DNA from: a virus
Virus record (IMG/VR): IMGVR_UViG_3300035170_000083
Span: 1-64,000 of that record
Reading direction: 5' to 3' (one strand)
Length of the DNA: 64,000 bases
Shown: positions 1 to 54,748 of the stretch, one piece after another
Layout of the letters: each line of letters starts with the position of its first letter
Numbering within the stretch: the stretch's first letter is position 1
Notes under the pieces: generated by a model
Databases searched by the model: none
Seen by the model: the letters and a program-made list of their open reading frames with translations, nothing else
What the model was told of the DNA's origin: nothing
Made by a program: the position numbers and the translations under genes

Positions 1-191
1 TTTATGATATTGATGGAATCACGCTGCTGCCGGCGTTCTCGACGGACATCCTCGGCGTCAACAGCGCCGCCACGCTGGCCAACGGCGAGTTCTACATCCA
101 GATCGACGGCCACCACCCCGGCGTGCGCGAGAAGATCTTCCTCCTGCTCAACGTCGGCGAGACCGTCTCGGTTCGCGCCGCCGCGGCCTGA
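1..191 (+). CDS. Tail sheath protein, C-terminal end (partial)
   Basis: An open frame enters from the left edge (codons in phase with position 3) and stops with TGA at 189-191, giving the last 62 residues of a protein. It lies directly upstream of the tail tube gene, where contractile phages keep the sheath gene. A protein starting at 63939 at the other end of the window has the Arg-Ser-Pro-Gly-Val-Tyr-Gly start typical of sheath proteins. I infer these are the two ends of one gene. The identification rests on synteny more than on this short fragment. Confidence 0.6.
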   Translation, partial: YDIDGITLLPAFSTDILGVNSAATLANGEFYIQIDGHHPGVREKIFLLLNVGETVSVRAAAA

Positions 192-229: not shown

Positions 230-691
230 ATGGCCGAGCCCGATATCGCCAACGCGCTCGTTTCCGGCGACGGTGTGATGTGCCGCATCTTCGTCGGAAA
301 CGACCGCTTCGGACAGGACCTGATGGTGTCCGGCAGCATCAAGCCGCGCACGACCCAGTACCAAGATGACCACATGGGCAACGACGTGTCGAAGCTCGAC
401 ATGCGCATCTGGGGCTGGGACCTGTCGCTGAAGTTCAAGTACAAGACCGACCGTATGATTCGCGCGCTGCTCGCCTTCTACGCCTCGAAGGCGCTGCCGG
501 GCGCGAAGATCCTCCCAATGTCGATCTTGCTGGCCATCCAGGAGATGGACTCGTCGGCGAAGCGGCCCGGCTACCTTTTCGCGCCATGCATCGCCGACTA
601 CAACCTCGAGCTGCCTGGCATGAAGGAGCGCCTGATGCAGGGGCTCGATGCCAAGGCCGAGCGGTGGAAGCCCACCCAGGTGAGCACGTAA
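230..691 (+). CDS. Tail tube protein
   Basis: This 153-residue soluble protein follows the sheath and precedes the tail chaperone, the conserved tube position in contractile phages. Length fits tube proteins (roughly 120-170 residues), which stack as hexameric rings and form the DNA conduit inside the sheath. A VSGSIKPRTTQ stretch near residue 33 and alternating beta-like segments (MRIWGWDLSLKFKYK) fit a tube beta-barrel. Assigned by position and size; no diagnostic motif was recognised. Confidence 0.6.
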   Translation: MAEPDIANALVSGDGVMCRIFVGNDRFGQDLMVSGSIKPRTTQYQDDHMGNDVSKLDMRIWGWDLSLKFKYKTDRMIRALLAFYASKALPGAKILPMSILLAIQEMDSSAKRPGYLFAPCIADYNLELPGMKERLMQGLDAKAERWKPTQVST

Positions 692-695
692 GCCG

Positions 696-1262
696 ATGGC
701 GAAGAAGACGATCTATGGCCTGGCGCTCCTCCCCGACAACCGCGCCGTGCGCGTCCAAAAGCTCGACGCGCGCAAGATGCTTCAGCTAACCGCGATGGTG
801 GCGGACATGTTGCCGGCGGTGAAGGCGGGGGAGCTGCCGGAGGTCTCCATCACCGGAAAGTCGATGGTGGCGCAGCAAGAGAAGACCATCGCGATGTGCG
901 TCAAGGGCATCACCCCGGGCCCGGTCGCGCTGGTCATGAAGAAGCGCGCCCTGACCGCTGAAGAGGCCGCAGCCGCGACGAAGGCGGGTCAGCCTATGCC
1001 CACCGAGGTGACCGACGGAGTCGACGTCGAGGCGACGCTGGCTCCGTACGGCGACCGGGAATCCGAGGAGTTCAAGCGCTGGATCCCGCTCGGGGAGCTG
1101 CAGCTCGAGTCGGACGACGAGAACAACGACCTGTCGATGTGGAACCTCTTCGAGGACCCCGTCGCCTGGAAGGCCGTTCTCAATCGCATCGCGGCGGCGG
1201 GGGGAGGCGGCCGCGGGCTCGACCCTTTCGCGGGAAAGATGCTGAAGACTTCTGCTGGGTAA
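696..1262 (+). CDS. Tail assembly chaperone (G-like), zero-frame product
   Basis: A 188-residue protein between the tube and tape measure genes, the place of gpG in lambda and E in P2. These chaperones coat the tape measure protein during tail assembly and are made in two forms by a -1 frameshift. The heptamer G GGA AAG lies in phase at 1232-1238, eight codons before the TAA stop at 1260-1262. The overlapping -1 frame continues to 1441. The C-terminus is Gly-rich just before the slip site. Role is well supported by position plus the slip site. Confidence 0.8.
   Translation: MAKKTIYGLALLPDNRAVRVQKLDARKMLQLTAMVADMLPAVKAGELPEVSITGKSMVAQQEKTIAMCVKGITPGPVALVMKKRALTAEEAAAATKAGQPMPTEVTDGVDVEATLAPYGDRESEEFKRWIPLGELQLESDDENNDLSMWNLFEDPVAWKAVLNRIAAAGGGGRGLDPFAGKMLKTSAG
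1232..1238 (+). promoter_or_regulatory. Programmed -1 ribosomal frameshift site GGGAAAG
   Basis: G GGA AAG is the X XXY YYZ heptamer used by lambda at its G/T junction, and here it is in exactly the right phase (zero-frame codons GGA 1233-1235 and AAG 1236-1238). After a -1 slip, reading resumes at 1238 with GAT GCT GAA GAC and stays open to the TGA at 1439-1441. No stimulatory structure was modelled. Confidence 0.8.
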
Positions 1263-1441
1263 TCGGCTGCCTGATGGTCTACGGCAACCAGCAGTGGGCC
1301 GACCTGCGCCGCTGTGACTGGGGCGAGCTCTCGTTCCTGTACCACTCGGTGGCGCTGGTGAAGCGCCGCGAAAACGAGGCCGCCGAAGAGGCTCGCGCGA
1401 GAGCCGAAGGCGACGGCCGCAGCGGCGTCACGCAGGGGTGA
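1238..1441 (+). CDS. T-like extension of the tail assembly chaperone (reached by frameshift)
   Basis: In the -1 frame relative to the chaperone, 67 codons run from the slip site to TGA 1439-1441 and would give a fusion of about 248 residues. The segment has no good start codon near its beginning; the ATG at 1139 in this frame precedes a long Arg-rich stretch that looks like a shadow. It encodes a hydrophobic/aromatic patch (WVIGCLMVYG) then a charged Ala/Glu/Arg helix. In lambda the T part binds tail tube protein; the same role is inferred. Confidence 0.75.
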   Translation, partial: DAEDFCWVIGCLMVYGNQQWADLRRCDWGELSFLYHSVALVKRRENEAAEEARARAEGDGRSGVTQG

Positions 1442-1444
1442 TCG

Positions 1445-3058
1445 ATGGAAGCTGGCGGCGCCGATACGGTCTACCGCGTCCTCACCGTCTACGACGCGGA
1501 CGCCAGCAAAGCCACGTCGGAGACCAGCAACTTCGCGTCGGTGCTCGATCACGTCGTGCACCTGGCGGAGATGGCCATCGACTCCCTGTCGGGCGTGATG
1601 GAGACCATCATCCACGTGGGGTCGGAGGCCGAGAAGTCGCGCATCAGCATCGCGGGCCTGTTCCAGGCCACCGGGATGAACACCGGCAACTTCAACACGG
1701 CGCTGGCCATGTCGTCGGAGATGCTGGCGCAGATGCGGAAGGACGCCGCGGCGCTCCCCGGCACGTTCGAGGACCTGACGGCGATCTTCCAGCGCGCCAT
1801 CCCCGGCGGCGCCCAGGCCGGCAAGTCGGCGAACCAGATCGAAGCGATGGCGTCGAAGATGATGGCCGTCGGTATCTCCTTCGGCATGCCGGCGGACTTC
1901 ATCGGCCGCGAGATGGCCGAGATGATGGAGGGGCGCGCCAGCTCGCGCGTGGCGCTCTTCTCGAAGCTGCGGCAGTTCATGGGCCCCGACATGGACGCTT
2001 CGAAGTTCAACGCCCTGGGGGCGCCCGAGAAGTGGGAGAAGATTTCGGCCGCGCTCGAGAAGTTCAACCCGATGATTCAGGAGTACGCGTCGACGTGGGA
2101 CGCGATCGAATCGACGGCGGAGAGCTATCTCACCAACATCATCCGCGTGGGGTCCTCGAGCCTCTTCGGCACGCTCAAGGACGACTTGGCGGCCGTCAAC
2201 GCCTGGTACGAGCGCAACGAGGAGACGATCTTGGCAGTGTCGCGCCGGCTCTTCGACGACCTGGGCGGGGCCATCAAGTTCGTCGTCGAGATGGTCCAGG
2301 GCAGCGTCGAGACGGTGCTCGACTGGATGAAGGCCTTCGGTCTCGCCAACGACGACGCCGACGCGGTCCAGACGCTGGTGCGAGCGATGGAGGTCGCCGG
2401 CACGGTCATGGGGGTCATCATCGGCCTGACCGTCGCGTGGCGGACCGCGCAGATGGCGCTGAACTTCGCGTTCCTCGCGAACCCCATCGGCCTGGTGGTG
2501 GTCGCGGTGACGGCGCTCGCCGCCGGCGTGCTGATGCTCATTTCGTACTGGGACGACCTGATGGACTCGATGACGCAGGCGATCGACTCGCCGATTATGC
2601 GCAGCCTGATGCGCAAGGCGGGATTCATCCCCGAGGGCGCCACCGACGAGGACATCAACGATGCGATGGGCGGCGCGCGGCGCGACAAGGAGCGGCGCCA
2701 GGCGGAGCTCAAAAAGGAGTTCGGCGACGACGGCGTGATGGCGCACATCAAGGGGATGCTGGAGCAGCACGGCCTCTACGCTGGGACGCCGGCGGTGTCG
2801 GGCGCGCACGAGTTCATGCCGGGAGCGCAGGGGTTCCTGACGCCCGACCAGAAGGCGCAGCAGGACGCCAAGAGCCTGCTCGACAAGGCCGGGAAGCCGG
2901 TCACCCAGCACGTGACCAACATCGGCGCCATCAACATGTACAACAACATCTACGACGCCGAGGACCCTGCGCGCGTCATCACGCGCCTGGCCGCGAAGGC
3001 GGTGCGCGACCAGATCTCGCACCCCAACCAGAGCCCGTCGGCGGGCGTCTTCGAGTAG
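1445..3058 (+). CDS. Tail tape measure protein
   Basis: 537 residues, immediately after the chaperone pair, the universal tape measure position. Largely helical and Ala/Met/Glu-rich, with a hydrophobic stretch near residues 318-372 (GVIIGLTVAWRTAQMALNF and IGLVVVAVTALAAGVLMLI) that could insert in the host membrane during DNA ejection. Small residues dominate the C-terminus. Tape measure length sets tail length; using about 1.5 angstrom per residue, a short contractile tail of roughly 80 nm is inferred. ATG follows the previous stop by 3 nt. Confidence 0.85.
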   Translation: MEAGGADTVYRVLTVYDADASKATSETSNFASVLDHVVHLAEMAIDSLSGVMETIIHVGSEAEKSRISIAGLFQATGMNTGNFNTALAMSSEMLAQMRKDAAALPGTFEDLTAIFQRAIPGGAQAGKSANQIEAMASKMMAVGISFGMPADFIGREMAEMMEGRASSRVALFSKLRQFMGPDMDASKFNALGAPEKWEKISAALEKFNPMIQEYASTWDAIESTAESYLTNIIRVGSSSLFGTLKDDLAAVNAWYERNEETILAVSRRLFDDLGGAIKFVVEMVQGSVETVLDWMKAFGLANDDADAVQTLVRAMEVAGTVMGVIIGLTVAWRTAQMALNFAFLANPIGLVVVAVTALAAGVLMLISYWDDLMDSMTQAIDSPIMRSLMRKAGFIPEGATDEDINDAMGGARRDKERRQAELKKEFGDDGVMAHIKGMLEQHGLYAGTPAVSGAHEFMPGAQGFLTPDQKAQQDAKSLLDKAGKPVTQHVTNIGAINMYNNIYDAEDPARVITRLAAKAVRDQISHPNQSPSAGVFE

Positions 3059-22335: not shown

Positions 22336-22505
22336 TGACTCCATGTAACCCTATACAAAGGGTACGACCGATTTATTTCCGGAAGCACCCGCGTGATCGC
22401 GTGCGGTGAATTGTCGCATGGGTAAGATGGCGACCGGCCAAGAAATTTTGGGATGTGCGGTCCCCAATTGACAACCAGTCGACCGCCGATCAGAAGCTCG
22501 TCAGC

Positions 22506-23201
22506 GTGCGAACCCTGGTAGTGTTTCTCGCGCTCTTTGTTGCAGCGCCCGCGTTCTCCGACGAGGCTGATATCAGCGAGGAGGCGCGCCGCCATTTCGA
22601 CGTCGGATCAAAGGCCTACGACCTACTGCGCTGGACCGAGGCCCTGGAGCACTTCCAAGCGGCCTACGAGCTCCGGCAGGACCCGGCGCTGCTCTTCAAT
22701 ATCGGGCAGTGCCAACGGCAACTTGGCCAACGCGCGGCCGCCGTCCACAGCTATCGCGCCTATCTCGAGCACGTACCCAACGCGCCGAATCGGCAGACGG
22801 TCTTGGACAAGATAGCCGAACTCGAGGCTGGTGCACCTCCGCCGCCGGCGCCGCTGGCCTCGGCGAAGCCGCAACCCGCCGAGTCGCGCGTCGCCACGGT
22901 GGCGCCGCCGCCGGTGCGCCCGCGCCGATGGCGCCCAGGCGCGGCCGGCCCCGTTCTCATAGCGCTGGGCACGGCAGCCGCTGCTACGGGGATAGGCCTC
23001 GCCGCATACGGCAACCAGGTCGACGGCCGCGTGGCCGGTGCCCCTTCGCTGGCGCAGGCCGAGCGGTACGAGAGCGACCGCGACAAATTCGAAAATGCGG
23101 GATGGGCTATGATCGCCGTCGGAGGTGCTGCCGCAGTGGCGGGCATCGTCGTCCTGACGGTCGATTCGGTTCGGGCTCGTCGCCGGGAGCGCGCCCGATG
23201 A
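22506..23201 (+). CDS. TPR-containing envelope protein (myxobacterial type)
   Basis: 231 residues from GTG 22506, chosen so that the protein begins with a signal peptide (VRTLVVFLALFVAAPAFS); ATG 22455 is an alternative. A tetratricopeptide pair (about 28-100; SKAYDLLRWTEALEHFQAAY, then QCQRQLGQRAAAVHSYRAYL) is followed by a Pro-rich linker and two C-terminal hydrophobic segments. This architecture is common in myxobacterial genomes. ATGA overlap links it to the next lipoprotein. Confidence 0.75.
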   Translation: MRTLVVFLALFVAAPAFSDEADISEEARRHFDVGSKAYDLLRWTEALEHFQAAYELRQDPALLFNIGQCQRQLGQRAAAVHSYRAYLEHVPNAPNRQTVLDKIAELEAGAPPPPAPLASAKPQPAESRVATVAPPPVRPRRWRPGAAGPVLIALGTAAAATGIGLAAYGNQVDGRVAGAPSLAQAERYESDRDKFENAGWAMIAVGGAAAVAGIVVLTVDSVRARRRERAR

Positions 23202-24394
23202 GCCGACGCCGCTGGTCACTCGCGCTGTTGCTCCTGGCCGCGAGCTGCCCCAAGAGCACGCCGCACGTTCGGTGCACGAACGACGACCAGTGCTCACTCC
23301 CCGGGCGCCCGGCCGTCTGCATCGACCATGTCTGCGCGGTGGCGTCGTCGAGCTGTCCGTCGGGGTATCGCATCGACTACCGCTCCGAAGGAAGCGCCGA
23401 CTGTGTCCCGGCGGCACCGGACATGGCCGTGGGCTCCGGCGATGACCTGGCTACGTCCACGCCGAGCGACATGGCGGTCCCGCCCGGCACGCCGCTGACG
23501 TGGAGCCCCGTGTCGAATCCCGCGGCTGACCACGGGACAACGCTGCGCAGCATCTCCGGCCTCGGGCCCAACGAGGCGTGGGCTGTGGGGGATTCGTCGA
23601 CGGTGCTCTACTGGCTGGCGGGGCAATGGTTGGCTCGAACCGCGATCCAGGGCCCGTTTCCTCCGGCCCTCGACTCGTTCACAACGGTCGTGGCCGGCCC
23701 GACGTCGGCGGAATGCTTCATCTTCGACGGCCACCCTCGGTTCCAGCACGTGCAGAGCCTGATGGGTGCCTCGTGGACGACGCTGCAACCCCGCTCTCAG
23801 CAGACGACAATCGACGGCGCAACCATCAACAGCTCCGAGGTCTGGGCCGTGGGAACCAGCGACGGCATCATTCACACGGTCGCCGGGATGTCGCCGACCC
23901 TGGTGACGGGGGTCGACGCCGTGACGCCGCCGGCCTTCAAGGCCGTCTGGTCGGTCGGCAACGACACGTGGGTCGTCGGGCTCGGCGGCGTGATTGTGCA
24001 CGTCACAGCCGCGGCACCTGGCGGTCCATGGGCGGGGACGCAGATCGCCACCACGTCCACCGCGGACCTCTTCGCGGTCTGGGCCGGCGCGGGCGACGTC
24101 TGGGCGGCCGGCGCCGGCGGCGCGGTCGTGCACCTGGTGGCGGGCGGTGGCGGCTGGGCCAGCGCACCCAGCTCGAGCGGCGCCGCGGTTGACCTCCACG
24201 GCATCTGGGGCAGCGCAGGGGACGACGTCTGGGCGGTCGGGGATGGCGGCGCGCTGCTGCACTGGACCGGAGCCGCCGCGGGCTGGCAATCGGCCGCCAG
24301 CGGCACGAGCGCGCGCCTCAACGCGGTCTGGGGCAGCGGCCCGCGGGACGTCTGGGCGGTGGGCGACGGCGGCATCATCCTCCACGGTCAATAG
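23198..24394 (+). CDS. Beta-propeller lipoprotein (myxobacterial type)
   Basis: 398 residues. N-terminal lipoprotein-like signal (LALLLLAASC), a short Cys-rich segment (CTNDDQCSLPG), an acidic Asp-Met-Ala linker, then at least six blade-like repeats with DVWAVGDGG or EVWAVG cores, the last two as VWGSGPRDVWAVGDGGIILH. Such repeats fold as beta-propellers and are abundant in myxobacterial lipoproteins. Probably surface-exposed. Its 3' end overlaps a convergent gene by 20 nt. Confidence 0.8.
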   Translation: MSRRRWSLALLLLAASCPKSTPHVRCTNDDQCSLPGRPAVCIDHVCAVASSSCPSGYRIDYRSEGSADCVPAAPDMAVGSGDDLATSTPSDMAVPPGTPLTWSPVSNPAADHGTTLRSISGLGPNEAWAVGDSSTVLYWLAGQWLARTAIQGPFPPALDSFTTVVAGPTSAECFIFDGHPRFQHVQSLMGASWTTLQPRSQQTTIDGATINSSEVWAVGTSDGIIHTVAGMSPTLVTGVDAVTPPAFKAVWSVGNDTWVVGLGGVIVHVTAAAPGGPWAGTQIATTSTADLFAVWAGAGDVWAAGAGGAVVHLVAGGGGWASAPSSSGAAVDLHGIWGSAGDDVWAVGDGGALLHWTGAAAGWQSAASGTSARLNAVWGSGPRDVWAVGDGGIILHGQ

Positions 24395-24581
24395 CCGCCA
24401 CCAGGCGGTCACTCTCCCTCCGCTCATCGCGCAGCAGGCGCCGCAGCACGTCGCTCTCCATCTTCTCCCGGTCGAGCGTCGCCAGCAGGCGCACCAGCGG
24501 GTCGTGCGGCGGCAGCTTCGCGCAGCGCTGGCGCAGCTCGAGCAGCTCCTCGGGCAGCAGCGGGGCGGTCTCCTGGGCCAT
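24375..24581 (-). CDS. Small charged helical protein
   Basis: 68 residues from ATG 24581. It is rich in Leu, Arg and Glu with leucine-zipper-like spacing (EELLELRQRCAKLPPHDPLV). It is convergent with the propeller lipoprotein and overlaps its end by 20 nt. No family recognised; the coding call depends on composition. Confidence 0.4.
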   Translation of the reverse strand: MAQETAPLLPEELLELRQRCAKLPPHDPLVRLLATLDREKMESDVLRRLLRDERRESDRLVAAIDRGG

Positions 24582-25890: not shown

Positions 25891-26070
25891 TCATTCCTGG
25901 CGCGCCTGCAGGACGTCGTCCCACGTCACCGTGACCGGCCAGGCGCCGGCGTCGAAGATCTCGCGCAACCGCTCGATGGTCATCGCCTTGATCTCGGTGC
26001 GCGTCGGTCCTGCGCTGGGCGGTCGGCGGTCCGCCAATCTCGCTTTGATATCCTCGTCGTGGTCGCTCAT
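25891..26070 (-). CDS. Small protein downstream of integrase, possible directionality factor
   Basis: 59 residues. Its ATG overlaps the integrase stop (ATGA). Charged, with a predicted helix (MTIERLREIFDAGAWPVTV). Its place between integrase and attP is where excisionases can occur, but no winged-helix signature is evident. Confidence 0.5.
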   Translation of the reverse strand: MSDHDEDIKARLADRRPPSAGPTRTEIKAMTIERLREIFDAGAWPVTVTWDDVLQARQE

Positions 26071-27212
26071 CTCTTCCCTCCTGCGATCAGCTTGAATGCC
26101 TGCTCGGCCTGCGCGCCCTCGACCAGGCGCCGGTCGACGTAGTGCCGGAACGTCGTCGCTTCGTCCTCGTGTGACAGGTGGTTCATGATGTCGTTCGCCG
26201 CCGCCCCTCGCTTGGCAAGCACGGTGCCCGACGCGCTCTTGAGACCGTGAGGAGGGAAGCGGGGCACGCCGGCGCCATCGCAGAAGCGAGCCATCCCCTC
26301 CCAAAGCCACTTGTGCGTGTGATAGCCGTCCTCGGTGTACGGCGTCTTGAACAACGGCTCCTCCGGGTCTCGCCCCTCGATCAGCTCTCGAAAGAACGGC
26401 TGCAGCTTGTCGGGGATGACGCGCGGCTCGTTCGACTTCTCGGTCTTCCCGTCGTGGACGTTCAGCTGGGTGCATCCCATGTCGACGTCTCGAACCTGGC
26501 GAATCACCAAGTCTTTCGACCGCAGCGACATGGAGAACGCAGACAGGAGGCCCAGCGCCGTCCAGTCCCGCAGTAGAAGCCGAGACCAGACGTAGTCGTA
26601 CCATCGCTGCAGCTCGTTGCCGGTGGGCTTGCGCTTGCCGCTCTTGCGCTTGCCCAGCCCCTCGACGTCGTCGAATGGGTTGACGGTCACCCACCCCTGC
26701 TTCTTGCAGAACTTGTACAGGGACCGCGCGTTGATGAGCGCCGCCCGGTGGTAGGCCACCGAGATCGGCTCTCCATCGGCGCGCTTCCGCTCGCGGAAGG
26801 CGTCGTAGAGCTCGCCGGCGCGCTCGACCCTGATGCTGCCGATCGCGGCCCCGAGGTCGGGGAAGAAGAGGCGGAGGCGACGGACCGTCTCCGTGTAGCT
26901 CTGCTCGACGGTGCCCTTGTCCTTGAGGTGCTGTTGGTAGGCGACGATGCCCGCCTCGAGCGAGAGCGTACGGGTGCGCTCTATTCCGTCCCTGAGTTTC
27001 TGCGCGTCCTGTTCGGCTTCGACTCGGACACGCTCGCACTCGGCCTCGTCGAGGTCGGCCGCGTCGCCGACTCGGTAATGCGTAGCCTCCTTTCGATCTT
27101 TCGGATCCTTCGCTCTCGGCTCGATGTGGATGATGCGCCAGTAGACCGTGCCTCGGATGGTGACCTTGGTCGGTCCGACGACGCGCGGTTCTTCGTCTGC
27201 TCGTCGAGACAT
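26067..27212 (-). CDS. int: Tyrosine recombinase integrase
   Basis: 381 residues with AAGGGG before the ATG. About 75-175 is a SAM-like core-binding domain; the catalytic domain follows, with box I Arg231 (SMSLRSKDL), a Lys in DGKTEKSN, box II His322-Gly-Leu-Lys325 and nucleophile Tyr358 (TFRHYVD). The box II Arg of the usual HxxR is Lys here, which is uncommon. It recombines attP with a host tRNA gene. Confidence 0.9.
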   Translation of the reverse strand: MSRRADEEPRVVGPTKVTIRGTVYWRIIHIEPRAKDPKDRKEATHYRVGDAADLDEAECERVRVEAEQDAQKLRDGIERTRTLSLEAGIVAYQQHLKDKGTVEQSYTETVRRLRLFFPDLGAAIGSIRVERAGELYDAFRERKRADGEPISVAYHRAALINARSLYKFCKKQGWVTVNPFDDVEGLGKRKSGKRKPTGNELQRWYDYVWSRLLLRDWTALGLLSAFSMSLRSKDLVIRQVRDVDMGCTQLNVHDGKTEKSNEPRVIPDKLQPFFRELIEGRDPEEPLFKTPYTEDGYHTHKWLWEGMARFCDGAGVPRFPPHGLKSASGTVLAKRGAAANDIMNHLSHEDEATTFRHYVDRRLVEGAQAEQAFKLIAGGKR

Positions 27213-49225: not shown

Positions 49226-49411
49226 GTGGCGCGGCAGGGATTCGGCGCTCGCGTCGCCGCGGGCGCGGCCCGGGCAGGTGACGCTGCGCTGCGCTTCCTG
49301 GGCTTGCGGCGCAACCTGTTCTTCCCGGGCGGCAAGAAGGGCGCCGGCGGTGGCCGACGCGGCGCCGCGCCTCGTGGCAAGGCCGGTGGCGCCGGTGGCA
49401 AAGAAAGCTGA
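49226..49411 (+). CDS. Gly/Ala-rich basic protein with repeated tail (second copy)
   Basis: 61 residues from GTG 49226. A short N-terminal helix (ARVAAGAARAGDAALRFLG) then the same tail as its neighbour. It overlaps the PP-loop gene by 17 nt. Together they may be small substrates or nucleic-acid-binding partners of that enzyme; this is speculative. Confidence 0.5.
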   Translation: MARQGFGARVAAGAARAGDAALRFLGLRRNLFFPGGKKGAGGGRRGAAPRGKAGGAGGKES

Positions 49412-50117
49412 TCCCGGCCCCGTCCTTCCACTTCCCGAGGCCAGAGCTCTCCTGCAGCGTGCGCGCGCGGAGACCGGCCTCATCCTTGTCGCCCTGAGCG
49501 GCGGCAAGGATTCGCTCTGCACGCTGGACCTGGCGGTCGAGGTCTTCGGCCCGCGCAACGTGGTCGCGTTCTCGATGTACCTGGTCAAGGGGTTGCGCTG
49601 CTTCGAAGGGCCGATCGAAGCCGCCGCCCGCCGCTACGGCGTTCGCGTCGAGTACGTGCCGCACTGGATGCTCGGGCGCATGTACAAGTTCGCGTACCTG
49701 ATGCCGCATCGGGGCAACGCGCACGAGTGGCGCGAGACCAAGCTGACGGACATCGAGCAGCTGGTGCGGAAACGCACGGGCATCGACTGGATCGCCTACG
49801 GGCACCGCGCCGCCGAGTCGCCGCACCGGCGGGGCATGCTCAACAGCTTCCAGGGCTTCAACGACAGGCAGAAGCGCGTGTACCCCGTGTGGCGCTGGCG
49901 GGTGGGCGACGTCTACGCGTACGTGCGGGCGCGGCGCATCCCGTTGCCGCCGACGTTCGGCACGTACCGGGCGGGCGGCGTGAGCCTCAACCCGGAAGCG
50001 CTGACCTTCATCAAGAAGCACTTCCCCGACGACTACGGAAAGATCTTGGAGGTCTTCCCGTTCGCCGAGGTCCAGCTCAAGCGGCGGGAGCTCTACCCGC
50101 CCGAGGAAGACACATGA
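49395..50117 (+). CDS. PP-loop ATP pyrophosphatase (PAPS reductase/DndC-like superfamily)
   Basis: 240 residues from GTG 49395. LVALSGGKDSL gives the SGGxDS pyrophosphatase loop (residues 35-40). IDWIAYGHRAAES, VYPVWRWRVGDVYAYV and PPTFGTYRAGGVS follow the pattern of PAPS reductase-like phage enzymes. It likely adenylates a substrate for sulphur transfer or nucleotide modification. The substrate is unknown. Confidence 0.75.
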   Translation: MAKKADPGPVLPLPEARALLQRARAETGLILVALSGGKDSLCTLDLAVEVFGPRNVVAFSMYLVKGLRCFEGPIEAAARRYGVRVEYVPHWMLGRMYKFAYLMPHRGNAHEWRETKLTDIEQLVRKRTGIDWIAYGHRAAESPHRRGMLNSFQGFNDRQKRVYPVWRWRVGDVYAYVRARRIPLPPTFGTYRAGGVSLNPEALTFIKKHFPDDYGKILEVFPFAEVQLKRRELYPPEEDT

Positions 50118-52798: not shown

Positions 52799-53319
52799 GC
52801 AGCGACAAGTCGAAGGGCGGCCGCCCCCGCAAGCTGGACGAGGTCATCACCGTCCGCACGATGGAGGACGGCAAGGCGGTCGAGCGCAAGATGACCGTGG
52901 GCGATCGCATCCTCATGGTGGTGCGCGCCGGCAACTTCCCGACCCCGGCCGCGGTCGCGTGCGGCGTCTCGGAGCGCGCGTTCATGGCCTGGATGAGAGC
53001 CGGGCGCGAGGGCAAGGACGAGCAGTTCGCGCAGTTTTATCAGGCCGTAAAAGAGGCCGAGAGCGAGGCCGAGGCGGTCGCGGTCGGGACCATCATGGCC
53101 AACCCCATGTGGCAGGCCAAAGCATGGTTCCTCGAGCGGAAGTTCCCCGACCGCTGGGGTCAGACCCTGAAGGTCGAGCAGAAGGTCGAGCAGGAGCTCG
53201 AGGACGCGATGGAGCGCCTGCGGGCGAGGTTGCCGCATGAGGTCTTCCAGCAAGTCGTCTCCATCCTCGCTGATGACGAGGGTGGCGAAGCGGAAGCTGG
53301 CGAGCCTTCGATCCAATAA
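52795..53319 (+). CDS. Terminase small subunit
   Basis: 174 residues from ATG 52795. An N-terminal HTH region (about 45-75; PTPAAVACGVSERAFMAWMR) that would bind the packaging site, a central segment and an acidic coiled C-terminus (VEQKVEQELEDAMERLRARL). It overlaps the large subunit by 83 nt. Recognition of the pac/cos site is its expected role. Confidence 0.8.
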   Translation: MSSDKSKGGRPRKLDEVITVRTMEDGKAVERKMTVGDRILMVVRAGNFPTPAAVACGVSERAFMAWMRAGREGKDEQFAQFYQAVKEAESEAEAVAVGTIMANPMWQAKAWFLERKFPDRWGQTLKVEQKVEQELEDAMERLRARLPHEVFQQVVSILADDEGGEAEAGEPSIQ

Positions 53320-54748
53320 CGCCACCGCCGAGTTCGCCAAGTACCGGGACGACCCCGAGGGCTTCGCCCGTGACGTCCTGGGCATCGACCCTTGGGCCCG
53401 CCAGGCTGAGATTCTTCGCGCTGTAGCCGCCAACGACAAGACGGCCGTTCGGTCGGGTCACAAGATCGGCAAGTCGACCAGCTGCGCCATCCTGGCCCTC
53501 TGGTGGTACTGCACCCGGCCCCGCGCGCTGGTCGTCATGACCTCGGCGACGGATGAGCAGATCGGCAAGATCTTGTGGCCGGAGCTGCAGCGGCTCCATC
53601 GCAACGGTCGCCGGCGCATCGCCGGGCAGATGAACGCCTCGCACCGGTCGGGCTTCAAGAGCCCCGACGGCCGGTGGATCTTCGGCATCTCGACGAACAA
53701 GACCGAGAACATGGGCGGCTACTCGGGCGCCGAGTTGCTGTTCATCGTCGACGAGGCCTCTGGTGTTGACGATGCCATCTTCAACGCCATCGAAGGCAAC
53801 CGCGCCGGCGGCGCGCGGCTCATCATGTTCGGCAACCCGACGCAGATGTCGGGGCGCTTCTACGAAGCGTTTCATGACAGCGCCGAGTTCTGGCACCCCA
53901 TCCACGTTTCGAGCACCGAGTCGCCGAACGTCGTCGAGGGCCGCGTCGTCATCCCGGGCCTGGCCACGCGCGAGTACATCGACGAGAAGACGAAGGAGCT
54001 GGGCGGCCCCGGCAACAGCGAGTGGGACATCCGCATCGGCGGAAACTTCCCGTCGCAGGGAAAGAACAGCGTCATCGGCCTGGTGCTGGTCGAGAACGCG
54101 AACAAGGACTGGCGCCAGCCAACTGTCGAGGACGGCCCCTTGGAGATTGGCGTCGACGTCGCGCGCTACGGCGACGACGAGACGGTCATCTGGGCGCGCC
54201 GGGGGAAGTTCCTGTACGAGCCGACGGTCATCCGCAGCATGGACGGACCGGAGGTCGCAGGCGCAGTTCTGGAGCTAGTGCGCGAGCTGCGCCATCGCAC
54301 GGTGAAGCGCGTGGGCACACTGACGACCACGGGGCAGGAGATTGAGTCCATCGAGCTCGAACGCCCGCTGGTCAAGATCGACTCCATCGGCGTGGGCTCC
54401 AGCCCCTACGACGTCCTCAAGCGCAGCAAAGAGGTCAAGACCGTCGCCGTCGACGCCGGGTGCACGGCCGACAACGAAGAGGACTTCTTCAACCTGCGCT
54501 CTCAGCTGTGGTTCGCGCTGCAGAGCTGGCTGGCCGAGGGCGGCAAGTTCAAGCACGACCGGATGGCGCGCGGCGAGCTGCTGGCCCCCGTCTACGGCTT
54601 CGACGCACGCGGGCGCAAGCAGGTCGAGTCGAAGGACCAGATCAAGAAGCGCATCCATCGGTCCCCGGACCGCGCTGACGCGATGGCGCTGGCCATCTAC
54701 AAGGCTCCCGTGCGGAAGGGTCGCACCGGCGAGACCTACTACGAGTAG
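53237..54748 (+). CDS. Terminase large subunit
   Basis: 503 residues. Walker A SGHKIGKST (73-81), Walker B LLFIVDEAS (167-175), coupling motif GNPTQ near 202, and an RNase H-type nuclease with GVDVARYGDDE, VKIDSIGVGS and SPDRADAMALA aspartates. It is the packaging motor. ATG 53237 has GAGG upstream; ATG 53273 is an alternative start inside the overlap. Confidence 0.9.
   Translation: MRSSSKSSPSSLMTRVAKRKLASLRSNNATAEFAKYRDDPEGFARDVLGIDPWARQAEILRAVAANDKTAVRSGHKIGKSTSCAILALWWYCTRPRALVVMTSATDEQIGKILWPELQRLHRNGRRRIAGQMNASHRSGFKSPDGRWIFGISTNKTENMGGYSGAELLFIVDEASGVDDAIFNAIEGNRAGGARLIMFGNPTQMSGRFYEAFHDSAEFWHPIHVSSTESPNVVEGRVVIPGLATREYIDEKTKELGGPGNSEWDIRIGGNFPSQGKNSVIGLVLVENANKDWRQPTVEDGPLEIGVDVARYGDDETVIWARRGKFLYEPTVIRSMDGPEVAGAVLELVRELRHRTVKRVGTLTTTGQEIESIELERPLVKIDSIGVGSSPYDVLKRSKEVKTVAVDAGCTADNEEDFFNLRSQLWFALQSWLAEGGKFKHDRMARGELLAPVYGFDARGRKQVESKDQIKKRIHRSPDRADAMALAIYKAPVRKGRTGETYYE

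What the first reader, a model, noticed from the sequence alone, without database searches (positions are those of the whole stretch)
1232..1441. Lambda-type GGGAAAG frameshift in the tail chaperone of a contractile phage
Seen: GGGAAAG is in the exact slippery phase (G GGA AAG) eight codons before the zero-frame stop, and the -1 frame stays open for 67 codons with a plausible T-like domain. Known: lambda uses the same heptamer for G/T. Inference: a 248-residue fusion is made as a minor product.
Basis: partly seen in the sequence, partly recalled or inferred. Interest (0 to 1): 0.65.

Follow-up and report, generated by a model that had tools for sequence, protein, structure and literature searches.

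The report
Frameshift-made tail chaperone of contractile phage

Summary
GGGAAAG lies at 1232-1238 in phase G GGA AAG, the 188-aa chaperone ORF (696-1262) stops after seven more codons, and the -1 frame runs to 1441, just before the tape measure gene. A -1 frameshift giving a 248-aa fusion is strongly supported. All 16 relatives found have a T-like ORF in the -1 frame over the chaperone stop; in eight of them that frame has no start codon upstream of the conserved T motif. Against the closest relative (L003), the post-stop -1 frame is 72% identical, the other frames 41-43%. The exact site is less certain. GGGAAAG is GGGCAAG in L003 and L028. A second in-phase heptamer, C CCT TTC (1223-1229), is the only canonical one in L003; CCCTTTN also occurs in L028 and L021. 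A Shine-Dalgarno-like GGAGG lies 15 nt upstream of CCCTTTC in both window and L003, and 24 nt upstream of GGGAAAG. I favour CCCTTTC as the main site, with GGGAAAG as a second or alternative site. The two fusions differ only at residue 179 (Arg or Ala). New member of a known kind, in a very divergent phage: chaperone and T frame match no Pfam or PHROG family.

The parts
1..191 (+). C-terminal end of the tail sheath gene; the rest lies at the far end of the 65,735-bp record, which looks circular
   Evidence: L002 ORF 940 to end matches a PHROG tail sheath family at E 9.6e-6; 65% identical to the L003 sheath
230..691 (+). tail tube protein, 153 aa (by position and by homology to the L003 ORF of the same length)
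   Evidence: no PHROG or Pfam hit
696..1262 (+). tail assembly chaperone, zero frame (lambda G-like), 188 aa
   Evidence: position between tube and tape measure genes; overlapping -1 ORF in all relatives; AlphaFold model pLDDT 80.6, several of the weak top BFVD fold matches are named tail assembly chaperones
1203..1207 (+). Shine-Dalgarno-like GGAGG, 15 nt upstream of CCCTTTC; possible stimulator of the frameshift
   Evidence: anti-SD pairing -10.1 kcal/mol, strongest 1.2% of codon positions in the structural genes; same 15-nt spacing in L003 with -10.9, strongest 0.16%; Fisher p about 2e-7 over 13 relatives
1223..1229 (+). in-phase slippery heptamer C CCT TTC, proposed main -1 slip site
   Evidence: only canonical heptamer in L003; CCCTTTG in L028, CCCTTTA in L021; CCT is about 5% of Pro codons yet kept; C_CC.U_UU.C shifts at a high level in E. 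coli (PMC4066793)
   Evidence: GGGCAAG in L003 and L028; GGGAAAA at the same Gly-Lys place in eight other relatives
1229..1441 (+). -1 frame, T-like domain (last 67-70 residues of the 248-aa fusion), stop TGA 1439-1441
   Evidence: 72% amino-acid identity to L003 after the stop, 41-43% in the other frames; YG.Q motif across relatives; all-helical model pLDDT 88.5
1445..3058 (+). tail length tape measure protein, 537 aa
   Evidence: PHROG tape measure family, E 2.1e-11

Best explanation
The gene at 696-1262 encodes the tail assembly chaperone. Most ribosomes end at TAA 1260-1262 and make the 188-aa G-like protein. A minority, probably a few per cent (inferred from lambda), slip back one base near the end of the gene and read on to TGA 1439-1441, making a 248-aa G-T-like fusion. 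I think the slip occurs mainly at C CCT TTC (1223-1229), helped by the Shine-Dalgarno-like GGAGG 15 nt upstream; G GGA AAG (1232-1238) is a second, lineage-specific or relic site that may add to it. The short form would coat the tape measure protein and the T domain would bring in tube subunits. Shown here by sequence comparison: both frames, both heptamers, their conservation, the SD-like element. Inferred: that slippage happens, its rate, which site dominates, and the binding roles.
For: T-like ORF in the -1 frame across the chaperone stop in the window and all 16 relatives. In eight relatives (L005, L006, L012, L013, L022, L024, L025, L026) the -1 open frame holds no ATG/GTG/TTG before the YG motif, so the T domain can only be reached by a shift. 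Rare codons CCT, ACT, TCT, GCT are kept between window and L003 before the stop; elsewhere conserved residues with these codons kept them 0 times in 8; ACT, TCT and GCT are explained by -1 frame coding (DFCW) upstream of the stop. Predicted helix 1 of the T domain is encoded largely before the stop. For CCCTTTC: only canonical heptamer in L003, CCCTTTN in 4 of the 6 members of the window's group; SD-like element at the right distance; high-level shifting in E. coli.
Against: No experiment. GGGAAAG is one of the three most efficient bacterial heptamers (PMC4066793), and GGGAAAA at the homologous place is the apparent site in eight relatives, so the window may use GGGAAAG. No downstream stimulatory structure is supported: z about 0 in the window, -3.75 in L003 but starting 26 nt after CCCTTTC, and no useful covariation. 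The window's SD-like element ranks only p = 0.06 within its own gene. The chaperone matches no known family by sequence.
Confidence: 0.66

Rival explanations
1. The same -1 frameshift fusion, but with GGGAAAG (1232-1238) as the sole or main slip site.
For: Canonical, in phase, among the most efficient heptamers in E. coli; GGGAAAA at the homologous Gly-Lys position in L006, L012, L013, L016, L017, L024, L025, L026.
Against: Replaced by non-slippery GGGCAAG in L003 and L028; SD-like element 24 nt away and nothing better nearer (-2.6 kcal/mol); GGA is 9.5% of Gly codons, so chance formation is possible.
Confidence: 0.27
2. The T-like domain is translated separately by re-initiation or coupling (ATG 1274; in L003 GTG 8905 overlapping the stop, or ATG 8920).
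For: In-frame ATG 12 nt after the stop in both phages and a GTGA overlap in L003.
Against: Eight relatives have no start codon in the open -1 frame before the YG motif; -1 frame codons upstream of the stop are constrained; starting at ATG 1274 would lose predicted helix 1.
Confidence: 0.04
3. The -1 frame is only open by chance in GC-rich DNA and no fusion is made.
For: Long open -1 frames are common in this genome (65% of positions).
Against: Conserved protein sequence in that frame (72% against 41-43%), substitutions mostly at its third codon positions, and the same arrangement in all 16 relatives.
Confidence: 0.02

Closest known systems
Phage lambda G / G-T tail chaperone frameshift (G_GGA_AAG), described in PMC5009743
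   Same: Gene between tube and tape measure genes, -1 shift near the end of the chaperone gene, C-terminal T domain from the -1 frame; the window also holds the same heptamer in phase.
   Different: No detectable sequence relation to known families; contractile tail; a second, better conserved heptamer CCCTTTC upstream with an SD-like element; frameshift rate unknown.
Tail chaperone frameshifts surveyed by Xu, Hendrix and Duda 2004 and in SEA-PHAGES genomes (PRFect, PMC10885494)
   Same: Varied slippery motifs at one conserved place; GGGGGAA ('fivetwo') of relatives L005, L007, L020 is the motif PRFect reports as common in SEA-PHAGES.
   Different: Uncultivated phages, with CCCTTTN in the window's group; no CCCTTT motif is named in the PRFect text.
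IMG/VR phage contig IMGVR_UViG_3300020123_000145 (L003)
   Same: Same gene order; sheath 65%, chaperone 57%, T domain 67%, tape measure 62% identical; same CCCTTTC and GGAGG spacing.
   Different: GGGCAAG instead of GGGAAAG; GTGA stop/start overlap; longer T tail.

Membership tests
Tail assembly chaperone with programmed -1 frameshift (lambda G/T kind) | gene lies between tail tube and tape measure genes | tested here: met
   tube 230-691, chaperone 696-1262, tape measure 1445-3058 (PHROG E 2.1e-11); same order in L003. The tube itself is assigned by position, not by a family hit.
Tail assembly chaperone with programmed -1 frameshift (lambda G/T kind) | in-phase X_XXY_YYZ heptamer just before the zero-frame stop, with -1 frame open beyond it | tested here: met
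   CCCTTTC 1223 and GGGAAAG 1232, -1 frame open to 1441
Tail assembly chaperone with programmed -1 frameshift (lambda G/T kind) | second frame conserved as protein and always in the -1 frame among relatives | tested here: met
   16 of 16 relatives
Tail assembly chaperone with programmed -1 frameshift (lambda G/T kind) | fusion product made as a minor species | not testable with these tools
   needs mass spectrometry or a reporter
Tail assembly chaperone with programmed -1 frameshift (lambda G/T kind) | sequence or fold relation to known tail chaperones | tested here: inconclusive
   no significant Pfam, PHROG or PDB hit; weak BFVD fold hits, several named tail assembly chaperones, E 0.12 and above
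Lambda-type GGGAAAG slip site specifically | heptamer conserved in closest relatives | tested here: not met
   GGGCAAG in L003 and L028; CCCTTTN conserved instead

The most novel reading that the evidence does not exclude
The window's chaperone gene uses two tandem slip sites starting nine bases apart (CCCTTTC and GGGAAAG), served by one SD-like element, giving two fusion isoforms that differ by one residue (Arg or Ala at 179). It would be a living intermediate in the replacement of one slippery site by another while the fused protein stays conserved.
Probability: 0.35. Interest if true: 0.45.

Novelty: new member of a known kind. Interest (0 to 1): 0.3.

Why it matters
It extends the tail chaperone frameshift to a group of uncultivated contractile phages with no recognisable chaperone family. 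It also shows that the nearest lambda-like heptamer need not be the conserved one. The group as a whole (CCCTTTN, GGGAAAR, GGGGGAA at nearly the same place) is a small natural experiment in how a slip site changes while the fused product is kept.

Tried and rejected
Family searches (Pfam, PHROGs, PDB sequence) for the chaperone gave nothing significant, and for the T frame only isolated PHROG hits of unknown function in relatives. Foldseek of the T domain gave nothing usable, and PDB fold search of the chaperone nothing. GTDB genome scans with the tape measure gave no relatives; plasmids none; named phages only MW202816.1. Single-protein scans found no relatives for chaperone, tape measure or tube; the sheath gave L003. 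Downstream stem-loop or pseudoknot as stimulator: no support. GGGGGGA at 1199 as slip site rejected: in L003 the -1 frame is closed there and no SD-like site lies near. Overall synonymous conservation of the last 13 codons is not unusual as a simple count (p = 0.18); only the kept rare codons are.

Full report
What was checked. The window is the first 64,000 bases of a 65,735-bp IMG/VR record. Its two ends overlap inside the tail sheath gene apart from the first bases, so the genome looks circular. The gene order is sheath, tube (230-691), chaperone ORF (696-1262), tape measure (1445-3058), then baseplate genes including a Baseplate_J protein. GGGAAAG is at 1232-1238 in phase G GGA AAG, and the -1 frame runs to TGA 1439-1441.

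What chance would give. GGGAAAG by itself is as frequent as expected, and a long open -1 frame is common in this GC-rich genome, 65% of positions. In-phase canonical heptamers, however, are rare: 7 in 3518 codon positions, and 1 of the efficient class. The gene tail holds two efficient ones, CCCTTTC (1223) and GGGAAAG (1232).

Relatives. Named collections gave one weak relative, MW202816.1. A sheath scan of IMG/VR gave L003, and tape measure alignments gave 14 more distinct contigs after removing duplicates. In the window and all 16 relatives a T-like ORF lies in the -1 frame across the chaperone stop, with 43-81 codons beyond it. Most share a [RV]YG.Q-like motif. In eight of them the -1 frame has no start codon before that motif, so a shift is the only way in. 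Against L003 the -1 frame after the stop is 72% identical, the others 41-43%, and 23 of 44 substitutions fall at its third codon positions. The -1 frame is constrained before the stop too: rare codons ACT, TCT, GCT are kept in both phages, and they spell the conserved DFCW/NFCW in the -1 frame. Together these make the -1 frameshift very likely (I put it at about 0.94), and separate initiation unlikely.

Which heptamer. By tape measure tree the window groups with L003, L028, L021, L022 and L026, support 88/96, so the group is not firmly closed. Canonical in-phase sites are: window CCCTTTC and GGGAAAG (plus GGGGGGA further upstream); L003 CCCTTTC only; L028 CCCTTTG only; L021 CCCTTTA only; L022 CCCCCCG; L026 GGGAAAA. 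At the window's GGGAAAG place L003 and L028 have GGGCAAG, which does not allow re-pairing. The other group uses GGGAAAA (seven contigs) or GGGGGAA (three), the latter the 'fivetwo' motif reported for SEA-PHAGES chaperones in PMC10885494. An SD-like GGAGG lies 15 nt before CCCTTTC in both window and L003 (strongest 1.2% and 0.16% of background positions) and 24 nt before GGGAAAG. Over 13 less redundant genomes SD-like pairing 6-16 nt before the chosen site is enriched, Fisher p about 2e-7; this assumes independence, and the window alone ranks p = 0.06 within its own gene. In E. coli both motifs shift well: C_CC.U_UU.C is listed as high level and G_GG.A_AA.G among the top three (PMC4066793). I therefore favour CCCTTTC as the main site, leave GGGAAAG as a real possibility, and consider joint use plausible.

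Products. Either site gives a 248-aa fusion. They differ only at residue 179: Arg for CCCTTTC, Ala for GGGAAAG.

Structure. The chaperone model (pLDDT 80.6) has no significant match, but several of the weak top viral matches are named tail assembly chaperones. The T domain is predicted as helices (pLDDT 88.5), with helix 1 encoded largely before the zero-frame stop, which again argues against a start at ATG 1274. No downstream RNA structure was supported.

Verdict. Observation confirmed, interpretation partly supported, ordinary kind. The binding roles of the two products and the frameshift rate are taken from lambda (PMC5009743) and were not tested.

Noticed in passing
window 1-130 and the last 130 bases of the 65,735-bp record (L002 2607-2736): The record's ends overlap nearly identically inside the sheath gene, apart from the first 12 or so bases, so the genome is probably circularly permuted or closed, with an assembly error at its first bases.
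   Followed up: partly
window 54058-54064: A GGGAAAG in the same in-phase arrangement inside the terminase gene (53237-54748), with the -1 frame open for 95 codons; probably chance, but not tested in relatives.
   Followed up: no
L006, L012, L013, L016, L017, L020, L024, L025, L005, L007: In the sister group a baseplate J-like gene of about 400 aa appears to sit between the frameshifted chaperone and the tape measure gene (named by eye, not searched); the window lacks it there.
   Followed up: no
L003 8905-8908: GTGA stop/start overlap at the chaperone stop of the closest relative, a possible extra route to the T domain in that phage only.
   Followed up: partly
L005 3348, L007 3297, L020 2243: Non-canonical GGGGGAA at the homologous Gly-Glu position in three relatives, with an SD-like element 11-12 nt upstream.
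   Followed up: partly
window 22455-24427: A repeat (TPR-like) protein and a beta-propeller-like protein resembling myxobacterial genes (from memory, untested); the host may be a myxobacterium. An integrase lies at 26067-27212 (PHROG E 4.2e-26).
   Followed up: no
window 49278-50117: A phosphoadenosine phosphosulfate reductase-like gene, a common phage auxiliary gene (PHROG E 7.8e-18).
   Followed up: no
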